Source of the DNA: Cellulosimicrobium cellulans
GTDB taxonomy: Bacteria; Actinomycetota; Actinomycetes; Actinomycetales; Cellulomonadaceae
Direction of reading: 5' to 3'
NCBI RefSeq assembly: GCF_016921195.1
Contig: NZ_JAFGYF010000008.1
Coordinates: 62,001 to 126,000 of the forward strand
DNA length: 64,000 nucleotides
Below the pieces are notes generated by a model. The model searched no databases. It saw nothing but the letters and a program-made list of their open reading frames with translations, and was not told where the DNA came from. A program made the translations under genes and the position numbers. This document shows positions 17,330 to 38,263 of the stretch, one piece after another; position 1 is the first letter of the stretch; the number at the start of each line of letters is the position of its first letter.

Positions 17330-17475
17330 CGAGGGAGAACCGCGGTGCGCCGAGGTAGAACTGTGGTTGCGCGAAGGAGAACGCTGGTCACCGTGCCCGG
17401 GTTCTACCTCGACCGACCAGAGTTCTACCTCGGCCGACCGGAGTTCTACCTCGGCGGGCCGAGGGTTCTGCCTTG
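17330..17475. repeat. 21-bp repeat cluster A (core CGAGGTAGA), facing orientations
   Basis: Three units begin exactly 21 bp apart on the + strand (17330, 17351, 17372), sharing CGAGGxAGAAC and then GGT. Four units follow on the opposite strand, with the reverse core TTCTACCTCG ending at 17411, 17432, 17453 and 17475. The cluster fills the gap between convergent genes for the flavoprotein and prpC. Related clusters are at 36724 and 38183. Confidence 0.85.
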
Positions 17476-17478
17476 GTG

Positions 17479-18612
17479 TCAGGGGAGGTCGCGCTGGTCG
17501 GGGCCGACGTACTCGCTGAGCGGGCGGATGAGGGCGTTGGCGGCGCGCTGCTCCATGACGTGCGCGGTCCAGCCGACGACGCGCGACGCGACGAACAGCG
17601 GCGTGAACATCGGGGTGTCGAAGCCCATGAGGTGGTACGCCGGGCCGGCCGGGTAGTCGAGGTTCGGCAGGATGTTCTTGCGCTCGGTCATCGCGGTCTC
17701 GAGCGCGACGTAGAGGTCGAGGAGGTCCTGGCGGCCGTAGTGCTCGACGAGGTCGTCGAGCGTCGCGCGCATGGTGGGGACGCGCGAGTCGCCGTGCTTG
17801 TAGACGCGGTGCCCGAAGCCCATGATCTTGCGCTTGTGGGCGAGCGCGTCGTCGAGCCACGCCGCGGCGCGGTCGGCGGTGCCGATCTCGGCGAACGTCG
17901 CCATGACGGCCTCGTTCGCGCCGCCGTGGAGCGGGCCCTTGAGCGCGCCGACGGCGCCCGTCACCGCGGAGTGCAGGTCGGACAGCGTGGACGTGATGAC
18001 GCGGGCGGTGAAGGTCGAGGCGTTGAACGAGTGCTCGGCGTACAGCACCATCGAGACCTCGAACGCGCGCACGACGGCGGGCTCGGGGACCTCGCCGAAC
18101 GTCATCCACAGGAAGTTCTCCGCGTAGGTGAGGTCGTCCCGCGGCTCGACGATCTGCTGGCCCCGACGACGGCGCTGGTCGAGCGCGACGGCCGCCGGCA
18201 GCACGGCCCACAGGCGGACGGCCTTGGCCTGCTCGGCCTCGGGCGACGAGTCCTCGGCGTCGGGGTCGTGCGCGCCGAGCTGGGAGATCGCGGTGCGGAC
18301 GACGTCCATGGGATGGCACGTCGTCGGCAGCTCGAGGATCGCGTTGCGCACGTTGCCGGGCAGGGCGCGGTGCGCACGCTCGACGGCCGTCTGCTCGGCG
18401 AGCTGCTCGGGCGTGGGGAGCTCGCCGTGCCACAGGAGGTACGCGACCTCCTCGAAGCTGCGACGCGCGGCGAGGTCCTGCACCGGGTAGCCGCGGTAGA
18501 GCAGCGAGTTGGTGTCGGGGTTGACCTTGGAGATGGCCGTGACGTCGACGACGACGCCCGCGAGCCCCTTGCGGATCTCGGGCCCCTCGGTGGTGGTCGG
18601 GGAGGTGGTCAT
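17479..18612 (-). CDS. prpC: 2-methylcitrate synthase
   Basis: A 377-residue citrate-synthase-fold enzyme that condenses propionyl-CoA and oxaloacetate to 2-methylcitrate. The catalytic elements are visible: His in LKGPLHGGANEAV, His in GFGHRVYKHGDSR, and a C-terminal Asp in GFDTPMFTPLFVASR. The length and the setting behind prpD and prpB favour methylcitrate over housekeeping citrate synthase. The ATG at 18612 has an AAGGAG SD. It is the last gene of the prpDBC operon, 79 bp after prpB. Confidence 0.93.
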   Translation of the reverse strand: MTTSPTTTEGPEIRKGLAGVVVDVTAISKVNPDTNSLLYRGYPVQDLAARRSFEEVAYLLWHGELPTPEQLAEQTAVERAHRALPGNVRNAILELPTTCHPMDVVRTAISQLGAHDPDAEDSSPEAEQAKAVRLWAVLPAAVALDQRRRRGQQIVEPRDDLTYAENFLWMTFGEVPEPAVVRAFEVSMVLYAEHSFNASTFTARVITSTLSDLHSAVTGAVGALKGPLHGGANEAVMATFAEIGTADRAAAWLDDALAHKRKIMGFGHRVYKHGDSRVPTMRATLDDLVEHYGRQDLLDLYVALETAMTERKNILPNLDYPAGPAYHLMGFDTPMFTPLFVASRVVGWTAHVMEQRAANALIRPLSEYVGPDQRDLP

Positions 18613-18691
18613 GCGGTCACTCCTTCGTGCAGCACGGGTCGCGGGGAGATGCGGTGCCGCGGCCCGACGGGCGCGCGGCACCGGCGGGTCG

Positions 18692-19609
18692 TCAGGGCCG
18701 GTAGGTGAAGATGCCCTCGTCGAAGGTGTTGTAGGCGGCGTAGTCGAGCAGCTCGTAGAGGCGGGCGCGGGTCTGCATGCCCTCGACCTGCCCGGCCTGG
18801 GTGCCGGTCGCGGCGATCTCGTCGAGCGCGCGCTCGGCGGCGCCCATCGCGACCCGCAGGAGCGTGACGGGGTAGATGATCAGCCGGACTCCCGCGTCGC
18901 CGAGCTGGCGGCGCGTGAAGAGCTCGGACTTGCCGAACTCGGTCATGTTGGCGAGGACCGGCACGTCCACGGCGGACGCGACGGCCTCGAACTCGGACAG
19001 GTCCTTCATGGCCTCGGGGAAGATCGCGTCGGCACCGGCGTCGACGAGCGCCTTGGCGCGGTCGATCGCGGCGCGCAGCCCGCCATCGCCCGGGATCGTG
19101 CCGCGGACGTCGGTGCGCGCCATGATCAGGAAGCCCGGGTCGCGGCGCGCGTCGGCGGCCGCGCGGACCCGCTTGGCCGCCTCGTCGAGCCCGACGACCT
19201 CCTTGCCGTCGAGGTGGCCGCACCGCTTGGGGTTGACCTGGTCCTCGACGTGCGCGCCCGCGACGCCGGCGTCCTCGAGCGCCTGGACCGTGCGCGCGAC
19301 GTTCATGGGCTCGCCGAAGCCGGTGTCGGCGTCGACGAGCGCGGGGAGGTCGGTGACGCGCGCGATCTGCTGCGAGCGCCCCGCGACCTCGGTGAGGGTC
19401 GTGAGGCCGATGTCGGGCAGGCCGAGGTCCGCCGACAGCACGGCCCCGGACACGTACACGCCCTCGAAGCCCTTGTCCTGGATCAGGCGCGCGGACAGCG
19501 GGTTGAACGCGCCCGGGAGCCGCAGTGGCTCCCCCGTCGTCGCCGCGGCGTCGAGCGCCGCGCGGAACGCGCGCCGCTTGTCCGACGGCGTCACCTGGCT
19601 GTACAGCAT
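18692..19609 (-). CDS. prpB: Methylisocitrate lyase
   Basis: A 305-residue PEP-mutase/isocitrate-lyase family enzyme that splits 2-methylisocitrate to pyruvate and succinate. The catalytic Cys motif KRCGH (in VNPKRCGHLDGK) is present, as are the metal-binding DADTGFGEP and VEDQ. The start overlaps the prpD stop by one base (TGATG), so it is translated by coupling. Confidence 0.95.
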   Translation of the reverse strand: MLYSQVTPSDKRRAFRAALDAAATTGEPLRLPGAFNPLSARLIQDKGFEGVYVSGAVLSADLGLPDIGLTTLTEVAGRSQQIARVTDLPALVDADTGFGEPMNVARTVQALEDAGVAGAHVEDQVNPKRCGHLDGKEVVGLDEAAKRVRAAADARRDPGFLIMARTDVRGTIPGDGGLRAAIDRAKALVDAGADAIFPEAMKDLSEFEAVASAVDVPVLANMTEFGKSELFTRRQLGDAGVRLIIYPVTLLRVAMGAAERALDEIAATGTQAGQVEGMQTRARLYELLDYAAYNTFDEGIFTYRP

Positions 19610-37511: not shown

Positions 37512-37637
37512 CGGTCGACCGTTCGCCTGCCCGTGGCGGTACCCTCGGCGGCCTGCCGGTGGGACCCTGGGAGGATCCGGCGTCCCGCGGCGGGTCACGC
37601 CCTCCGGCCGCCGGCGTCACGAAGGAGTGAGACGACG

Positions 37638-38045
37638 ATGGTCACCATTCGGCGCGGGTTCTCCAGCTTCTCGGCGGACGACCTCGACGCGGCGCGCGAT
37701 TTCTACGGGAGCACCCTCGGGCTCCCCGTCACGGCACTCGACGACGGGGGCGGTCTGGTGCTCCACCTGGGCGGGGGCTCGGACGTGTTCGTCTACCCGA
37801 AGGAGGACCATCGGCCGGCCGCCTTCACGGTCATGCACCTCACCGTCGACGACGTGGACCAGGCCGTCGACGAGCTCACCGCGAAGGGCGTGACGTTCGA
37901 GCGCTACGAGGGGTTCGACCAGGACGAGAAGGGCATCGTGCGCGGGTTCATGGAGGGCGGCGACGGTGCGTGGTTCACGGACCCTGCCGGCAACATCGTC
38001 GGCCTCGCCGACGGCGAGAACATGTCACGCCTGGTCGAGGGCTGA
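37638..38045 (+). CDS. VOC-family (glyoxalase/bleomycin resistance fold) protein
   Basis: A 135-residue single VOC module pair (FSADDLDAARDFYGSTLGLPV, then MHLTVDDVDQAVDELTAKGV, then WFTDPAGNIVGL). The metal-ligand His and Glu of true glyoxalase I are only partly matched, so an enzymatic role is uncertain. The ATG has an AAGGAG SD. It is monocistronic and convergent with asd across repeat cluster C. Confidence 0.87.
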   Translation: MVTIRRGFSSFSADDLDAARDFYGSTLGLPVTALDDGGGLVLHLGGGSDVFVYPKEDHRPAAFTVMHLTVDDVDQAVDELTAKGVTFERYEGFDQDEKGIVRGFMEGGDGAWFTDPAGNIVGLADGENMSRLVEG

Positions 38046-38180
38046 GGCCCGGCAGATCGGCACGACGCCGCCGCGGGAGGCCCCGGCGGCGTCTGCACGT
38101 CATGGTGGAGCTTCAGCCGTCGAGCACGAACCGCCGCCCGACCCGACGCAGGGCGCTCCGCCGTCGGTCAGACGTCCGAG

Positions 38181-38263
38181 CACGAGGTAGAGCCCTGGCC
38201 GATGACCAGGGCTCTACCTCGTGGTACCAGAGTTCTCCCTCGGCGGACCGGGGTACTACTTCG
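38181..38263. repeat. 21-bp repeat cluster C; its last unit contains the asd stop codon
   Basis: A near-perfect inverted pair with 18-bp arms (38181-38198 and 38206-38223) around a 7-nt loop. Two more reverse units follow, ending at 38242 and 38263, again exactly 21 bp apart. The last reads TACTACTTCG, and its CTA (38256-38258) is the complement of the asd TAG stop, so the repeat runs into the asd coding end. Same family as clusters A and B. Confidence 0.87.

What the first reader, a model, noticed from the sequence alone, without database searches (positions are those of the whole stretch)
17330..38263. A 21-bp phased repeat family (core CGAGGTAGA) in three intergenic clusters, in facing orientations
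Clusters at 17330-17475, 36724-36825 and 38181-38263 contain 7, 5 and 4 units with a spacing of exactly 21 bp (one 22). That equals two turns of B-DNA, so all units face the same side of the helix. In each cluster direct units are followed by inverted ones, so long hairpins can form; cluster C has perfect 18-bp arms. The family sits only between genes, near convergent or divergent ends. Phasing and symmetry fit a DNA-bound protein, a REP-like mobile palindrome or an RNA processing signal. I do not know a described family with this unit.
Basis: seen in the sequence. Interest (0 to 1): 0.85.

Follow-up and report, generated by a model that had tools for sequence, protein, structure and literature searches.

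The report
Facing octamer arrays at gene ends
Short repeats built on the eight letters CGAGGTAG stand in mirror-image rows just behind genes in this bacterium and several relatives; they look like shared end-of-gene hairpins, but what made them and what reads them is unknown.

Summary
The three clusters are real and belong to a genome-wide family: 619 unit matches in the own genome against 45 for the reversed pattern; genus Cellulosimicrobium. They prefer gene 3' ends, above all convergent ones. The 21-bp period is not conserved: relatives carry the same octamer CGAGGTAG at 16, 19 or 20 bp, so 'two helix turns' belongs to one lineage. Conserved are the octamer, the facing order (+ units, then - units) and the place behind a stop codon, whose TAG the octamer sometimes supplies. 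In six genomes of three families the element is a compact palindrome of four octamers (typically octamer-11-octamer-13/14-octamer-11-octamer) whose spacers differ between loci; in some genomes the arms covary, in one they do not. The REP transposase domain (Y1) was found in 0 of 30 genomes, and single units hardly fold. Best reading: a REP/BIME-like, sequence-tagged hairpin that serves both converging genes and grows by tandem duplication. Function and spreading agent are inferred, not shown. In Cellulosimicrobium many arrays flank a second hairpin with an ultra-conserved loop, absent from the window.

The parts
17330..17388 (+). cluster A, three direct units (starts 17330, 17351, 17372)
17395..17475 (-). 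cluster A, four inverted units (spacing 21, 21, 22)
36724..36803 (+). cluster B, four direct units, the last degenerate
36809..36825 (-). cluster B, one inverted unit
38181..38223 (.). cluster C, perfect 18-bp inverted repeat with 7-nt loop; the same stem stands in 6 of 9 orthologous regions (in one only partly), a different stem with the same octamers in a seventh (L144)
38226..38263 (-). cluster C, two further inverted units; the last holds the stop codon TAG of the minus-strand gene 38256-39374
16083..17315 (+). Pyr_redox_2 / Reductase_C gene ending 14 bases before cluster A
17479..18612 (-). citrate synthase gene whose end lies 3 bases after cluster A
36221..36634 (-). gene reading away from cluster B on the left (not identified)
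36837..37511 (+). 224-aa gene between clusters B and C; used to fetch orthologous regions
37638..38045 (+). glyoxalase-like gene upstream of cluster C
38256..39374 (-). gene whose TAG stop lies in the last unit of cluster C (not identified; one search tested another frame)

Best explanation
The clusters are members of a family of extragenic palindromes tagged by the octamer CGAGGTAG. Octamers face each other across a centre, so that a transcript entering from either neighbouring gene makes the same hairpin just behind the stop codon. I think the element works as a two-way gene-end hairpin (transcription end point, 3' protection, or insulation of converging genes) that is read by some factor through the octamer; its arms then grow and shrink by 16- to 21-bp tandem duplication. 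Shown: copy number, architecture, place, octamer conservation, period change, arm covariation in several genomes, no Y1 domain in the 30 genomes tested. Inferred: transcription, termination or protection, a factor that reads the octamer, and the way new sites arise.
For: Context, own genome: 15 of 27 clusters convergent, 7 tandem, 2 divergent, 3 in predicted genes, against 84 / 276 / 124 convergent / tandem / divergent gaps of at least 40 bp (Fisher p 2.4e-6 over the 24 intergenic clusters; p 2.5e-5 with the two composite sites counted once). Context, 11 other genomes: 18 convergent, 22 tandem, 2 divergent, 1 at a locus edge of 43; nearest gene 3' end at a median of 19 nt, 31 of 40 within 60 nt. 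In 9 cases of the own sample the gene's TAG stop is the octamer's TAG at an array (12 genes at up to 1 mismatch, 3 of them without an array). Innermost + and - units covary in 18 compact clusters (0 of 5000 permutations). In 28 of 29 four-octamer elements (those with equal arms) spacers fit their own partner better than partners of other loci (2 of 20000 permutations). At place C the stem of L144 differs from the window's on both sides and still pairs. Window clusters fold far below shuffles (z -8.6, -3.9, -8.2 on the plus strand). One convergent locus carries octamer units in 18 of 29 genomes examined.
Against: No T-run follows the hairpins, so they are not classical intrinsic terminators. 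Facing units do not covary in 28 clusters with a centre of 60 bases or more (1283 of 5000) nor in G093 (0.58 own, 0.55 other). The overall excess is small (0.808 against 0.776). Palindromes can be perfected by template switching without selection (recalled). Site 2 is an empty 16-22 bp gap in G088 and G124, so no hairpin is needed there. In an unselected 400 kb of G290 the convergent preference is only borderline (4 of 10 against 32 of 219 gaps, p 0.054). Octamer conservation outside the genus rests on loci fetched for two exact octamers on one strand. No expression data were available.
Confidence: 0.45

Rival explanations
1. A selfish REP/MITE-like family without host function: an unknown transposase copies the palindrome, insertions survive mainly behind genes, and tandem arrays arise by slippage.
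For: Unit matches vary from 4 to 479 among 17 genus genomes (two of these are only 75-83% complete); octamer pairs are abundant in single species and absent in congeners (G290 28, the five other g43 genomes 0); presence differs at sites 1 and 2; the second hairpin is nearly identical in many places.
Against: Y1 domain in 0 of 30 genomes (other transposase kinds were not searched); no target duplication or sharp border seen; octamers stay while spacers differ, though those loci were picked by two exact octamers on one strand, so only the facing arm is a fair test.
Confidence: 0.3
2. Arrays are binding sites of a DNA-binding protein (road-block terminator, nucleoid or topoisomerase site at colliding transcription units), read as double-stranded DNA.
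For: Octamer kept and spacing rigid within a lineage although spacers vary: 19-22-19 in 5 of 5 G093 elements, 19-21-19 in 5 of 5 G356 and 10 of 10 G290 elements (which allowed 19-20 for arms and 20-23 for the centre); 20-bp steps with unlike spacers in G103 and G084.
Against: Spacing differs between lineages (16 to 21), so one rigid multimer cannot serve all; isolated octamers are neither enriched nor avoided (127 seen, 128 expected); arm spacers covary in several genomes.
Confidence: 0.2
3. The 21-bp spacing itself (two turns of B-DNA) is the selected feature.
For: Exact 21-bp spacing in this genus.
Against: Periods 16, 19 and 20 with the same octamer elsewhere; the step from the last + to the first - unit is not fixed in this genus (9 to 68 in the listed clusters).
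Confidence: 0.03

Closest known systems
GTAG-tagged REPs, BIMEs and REPINs (PMC3733652: section 5 read, other passages incl. parts of the abstract seen; REPIN paper PMC3116915 seen in listings only; BIMEs recalled)
   Same: Short, extragenic, high copy, between convergent or co-oriented genes; octamer ends in GTAG; facing pairs with the tag outside; patchy between species.
   Different: There each unit is itself a stem-loop with a terminal unpaired GTAG tag, head-to-tail dimers are absent or rare in most genomes, RAYT-bearing REPtrons occur in most host species, and GTAG repeats are reported from Proteobacteria, Cyanobacteria, Chloroflexi and the PVC group ('actinobacter' occurs 0 times in the main text). 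Here single units hardly fold, GTAG is paired with the facing unit, head-to-tail rows are common, and no Y1 domain was found.
CGTC-tagged REPs (same paper)
   Same: Extragenic palindromes said to lack a dedicated transposase.
   Different: Tag sequence differs; no tandem octamer rows described in the parts I read.
Stem-loop repeat families of 40 bacterial genomes (PMC2267715; outline and abstract read)
   Same: Repeated intergenic stem-loop families, many undescribed before.
   Different: Family sequences were not compared.
STAR elements of staphylococci (PMC3532100; start of abstract in a listing only)
   Same: Interspersed intergenic direct repeats.
   Different: Nothing seen there on a facing octamer palindrome; sequence not compared.
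Eukaryotic foldback elements (recalled; nematode Tm1 paper PMC3169594 seen in a listing only)
   Same: Inverted arms made of short tandem repeats around a variable middle, as in the Cellulosimicrobium composites.
   Different: No transposase identified, no target duplication seen; far smaller.

Membership tests
GTAG-tagged REP | GTAG at one end of each unit | tested here: met
   octamer CGAGGTAG in the lineages read
GTAG-tagged REP | each unit is its own stem-loop with an unpaired tag | tested here: not met
   of seven single units six fold at 0 to -3.0 kcal/mol; one G093 unit makes a 5-bp stem at -5.2 that uses part of the tag. GTAG pairs with CTAC of the facing unit
GTAG-tagged REP | RAYT / Y1 transposase (present in most, not all, REP hosts) | tested here: not met
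   PF01797 in 0 of 30 genomes while the control set rings in 5 of 14
GTAG-tagged REP | mostly between convergent or co-oriented genes | tested here: met
Intrinsic (U-tract) terminator | G+C-rich hairpin followed by a T run | tested here: not met
   0 sites in 17200-17600 and 36600-38400
Known Rfam RNA | match at gathering score | tested here: not met
   only two tRNAs and SRP RNA in the window; none in 11 loci with arrays; nothing at gathering score in 5 further loci by E-value
CRISPR array | spacers from foreign DNA, cas genes | not tested
   8-bp repeats facing each other with 8-13 bp spacers make this unlikely (inference)
DNA transposon / MITE | target duplication and sharp ends | tested here: inconclusive
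   occupied and empty sites compared at two loci, no border could be fixed

The most novel reading that the evidence does not exclude
CGAGGTAG arrays are a sequence-coded, factor-read two-way gene-end signal of these actinobacteria: a dedicated protein recognises octamers at a lineage-specific pitch and sets the 3' ends of converging transcripts without a U-tract, with the octamer fixed while pitch and spacer co-evolve with the factor.
Probability: 0.18. Interest if true: 0.82.

Novelty: new variant of a known kind. Interest (0 to 1): 0.6.

Why it matters
How actinobacteria with very high G+C end transcripts without U-tracts is, to my recall, still argued about. Here are many natural, symmetrical, octamer-tagged hairpins behind genes, with congeners that lack them, and one locus where many versions can be compared. 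If they end transcripts, they offer a testable system and parts for engineering; if they are selfish, they are a REP-like family spreading without the REP transposase.

Tried and rejected
Helical phasing as the principle: rejected, since the period changes between lineages.

RAYT-driven REP: Y1_Tnp in 0 of 30 genomes. Other transposase families were not searched.

Coding reading: 21 = 7 codons made a heptad-repeat protein conceivable; rejected because most clusters lie between genes (24 of 27) and other lineages use 16, 19 and 20.

Chance or codon bias: reversed-pattern controls are far lower; isolated octamers match expectation. For the octamer-pair pattern 103 of 396 genomes match, most with one or two pairs, while by my count of the rows 31 genomes have a control match; I therefore read only the high counts as arrays.

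Plasmid or phage origin of the second hairpin: a 52-base loop query had no match among 72,556 plasmid and 50,697 phage records, and a 25-base exact pattern none in the viral contigs.

Insertion of the second hairpin between close relatives: in the piece compared, G112 and G098 both have a loop core at the aligned place, so nothing was learned about borders. The comparison of congeners of G072 was not carried to a clean empty site.

G084's first 400 kb had only 3 clusters although the genome has 229 octamer pairs, so it was little use as an unselected sample.

Literature: nine searches of the held PMC library; in the titles and abstract starts listed I saw no description of these arrays, and one search returned none. 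Lists were cut at 10-30 papers and most subscription papers are not held, so this is weak evidence of absence.
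Full report
OBSERVATION. The three clusters are as described. Cluster A (17330-17475) and C (38183-38263) lie between convergent genes, B (36724-36825) between divergent ones (own gene calls). In 946 kb of the own genome (C1 1-800000 and C22 1-146000) exactly 21 bp is by far the commonest same-strand octamer spacing (71 cases; no other spacing up to 70 bp exceeds 16).

THE ORGANISM. Orthologs of the gene between B and C come from Cellulosimicrobium records (nine of 34 loci, one of the nine filed as Sphaerisporangium). 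These names are inferences.

SPREAD IN THE GENUS AND FAMILY. Among 150 family genomes, unit matches at up to 2 mismatches are 4 to 479 in the 17 genus genomes (controls 0 to 3), 67 in G011, 255 in G087 and up to 45 in other g7 genomes; most others have a handful or none.

WHAT IS CONSERVED AND WHAT IS NOT. In G011 the units come every 20 bp, in g7 genomes (G087, G097, G048, G105, G077) every 16 bp, with the same core and the same facing order in the loci read. A search that fixes only the octamer, CGAGGTAG N7-15 CGAGGTAG, in 396 genomes of the order gave 167 pairs in the own genome, 229 in G084, 173 in G058, 125 in G042, 54 in G103, 33 in G023, 32 in G043, 28 in G290 (another family), 10 in G093, and 6 each in G356 and G177 (two further families; G177's arrays were not looked at), with controls of 0 to 2 per genome. 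In all 103 of 396 genomes had a match, mostly one or two, against 31 with a control match by my count, so single pairs mean little. The part after the octamer differs by lineage, and in G103, G084 and G093 even between neighbouring units, while the pitch stays. So the octamer and a lineage-specific pitch are kept; 21 bp is not.

THE COMPACT FORM. In G290, G356, G407, G093, G023 and G043 all 26 fetched loci hold an element with two octamers, a centre, and two facing octamers; 29 elements were found, 27 with 19-21-19 or 19-22-19 start-to-start spacing and two with a 20-bp arm (one search allowed arms of 19-20, a centre of 20-23 and up to 4 mismatches in the four octamers). Caution: loci were fetched because two exact octamers stood on one strand, so only the facing arm is an unselected test. 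Spacers of the two arms are complementary more often to each other than to those of other loci of the same genome (0.808 against 0.776, 2 of 20000 permutations, 28 elements). By genome, own against other: G290 0.93 / 0.90, G356 0.80 / 0.60, G023 1.00 / 0.79, G043 0.68 / 0.46, G093 0.58 / 0.55. Perfect complements: 3 of 3 G023, 4 of 10 G290, 1 of 5 G356, 1 of 4 G043, 0 of 5 G093, 0 of 1 G407. G093 thus keeps octamers and pitch without arm complementarity, which speaks against a pure hairpin explanation.

IN THE WINDOW'S GENUS. Compact clusters (18) show covariation of the innermost facing units (0 of 5000 permutations); clusters with a centre of 60 bases or more (28) do not (1283 of 5000). Folding energies of A, B and C lie 8.6, 3.9 and 8.2 standard deviations below shuffles on the plus strand. 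At place C the same stem stands in six of nine orthologous regions (in L143 only partly) with a varying number of inverted units; L144 has facing octamers with a different, still pairing stem; L142 has an unrelated hairpin; L146 has none. At place B five of nine have units, a sixth decayed ones, three none.

PLACE. Own sample: 15 convergent, 7 tandem, 2 divergent, 3 in predicted genes of 27 clusters, with gaps of 84, 276 and 124 (Fisher p 2.4e-6 on the 24 intergenic ones; 2.5e-5 with two composites counted once). An unselected 400 kb of G290: 4 convergent, 6 tandem, 0 divergent, 2 in or near genes of 12, with gaps 32, 149, 38; the convergent excess there is borderline (p 0.054). Forty-three clusters from 11 other genomes: 18 convergent, 22 tandem, 2 divergent, one at an edge. 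In tandem places the array is nearer to the upstream gene's 3' end than to the next start in 6 of 7 own cases and 17 of 22 others. The octamer's TAG is sometimes the stop codon itself.

ONE LOCUS, MANY VERSIONS. At one convergent gene pair (the right-hand gene is map by my reading of the sequence, not by a family search) 18 of 29 genomes examined show octamer units of their own type. The other 11 show an ordinary hairpin (G111, G105), the loop-core hairpin (G072), facing arrays of unrelated words (G116, G007), another palindrome (G077), other sequence with the left neighbour far off or not found (G065, G049, G078, G013) or just a short gap (G002). For loci with a long gap only the last 300 bases were printed, so units further left could be missed. 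A 30th genome, G019, matched at 72% only and was left out. Positions behind converging genes thus attract palindromes of many kinds, of which CGAGGTAG is one.

THE SECOND HAIRPIN. Many own-genome arrays flank an 87-base hairpin (24-bp perfect stem) with fixed polarity: + units, 44-base spacer, hairpin, variable stretch, then often - units. There are 40 main-strand matches, some of them contig-end fragments and with 40 candidates scored, so the true copy number is uncertain. All 22 own copies with left flank printed have a unit (in a few with one changed base) directly before the spacer; 35 of 53 copies examined have an inverted unit within 900 bases on the right, four of the rest being cut by contig ends. 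All 17 genus genomes match it. Its loop core occurs in 7 of 248 order genomes with no control match. Outside the genus it sits on locus-specific stems: own flanks pair at 0.89, flanks of different copies at 0.65 (15 of 16 chosen loci usable, genus copies included), and the inner stem changes on both sides in G177 and G160. Rfam has no match at its threshold. At one site it is present in six species with 1 to 7 units beside it, and absent in two whose gap is 16-22 bp; in eight more the left neighbour was not found. It is not in the window.

MECHANISM AND RIVALS. The facing order gives both transcripts the same hairpin; place behind stop codons, convergent bias and arm covariation favour an RNA or hairpin role; octamers and rigid pitch kept where spacers differ favour recognition by something. 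I commit to a sequence-tagged two-way gene-end hairpin (0.45), with selfish spread (0.30) and duplex-DNA protein sites (0.20) as rivals; these are not exclusive. No U-tract follows. No transposase of the REP kind was found.

WHAT IS KNOWN. GTAG-tagged REPs are nearest (PMC3733652, section 5 and passages): same places, same tetranucleotide, but other unit anatomy, other phyla, and usually a transposase. I file this as a new variant of the REP/BIME kind, not as a GTAG REP, since two features failed.

Noticed in passing
L083-L112 and G000 contig ends (e.g. C2:1-86, C13:1-87): A second repeat, an 87-base hairpin with an ultra-conserved loop, lies inside many arrays; the draft assembly breaks in it at many contig ends. 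The loop core recurs in other genera on locus-specific stems.
   Followed up: partly
L141 and L148, between the glyoxalase-like gene and cluster C; L146 at the same place: A gene that reads like a Fic-domain protein (my reading, no family search) has entered there in two species; L146 has other coding-like sequence in its place.
   Followed up: no
L142 10830-10905: At place C C. marinum has a long hairpin unrelated to the octamer family: the place keeps a hairpin, not the sequence.
   Followed up: partly
L147 (QAPD01000061.1): Record titled Sphaerisporangium cinnabarinum ATCC 31213 aligns with the window along 32.5-41.7 kb at 84-90% identity and carries cluster C; it looks mislabelled.
   Followed up: no
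L316 (G116) and L308 (G007), locus upstream of map: Facing arrays of quite different words (CGACTCAGCGC; CGAGATCGACC) occupy the same place, so the architecture outlives its sequence.
   Followed up: no
L147 and L149, ortholog of cluster B: Another short direct repeat (about 23 bp, twice) stands where other species have the 21-bp units.
   Followed up: no
G084:C1:1-400000 (L402-L421): Only 3 clusters in 400 kb although the genome has 229 octamer pairs: the arrays are unevenly spread along this genome.
   Followed up: no
window 14816-14889, 54030-54126, 54258-54343: Two tRNA genes and the small SRP RNA gene (Rfam).
   Followed up: no
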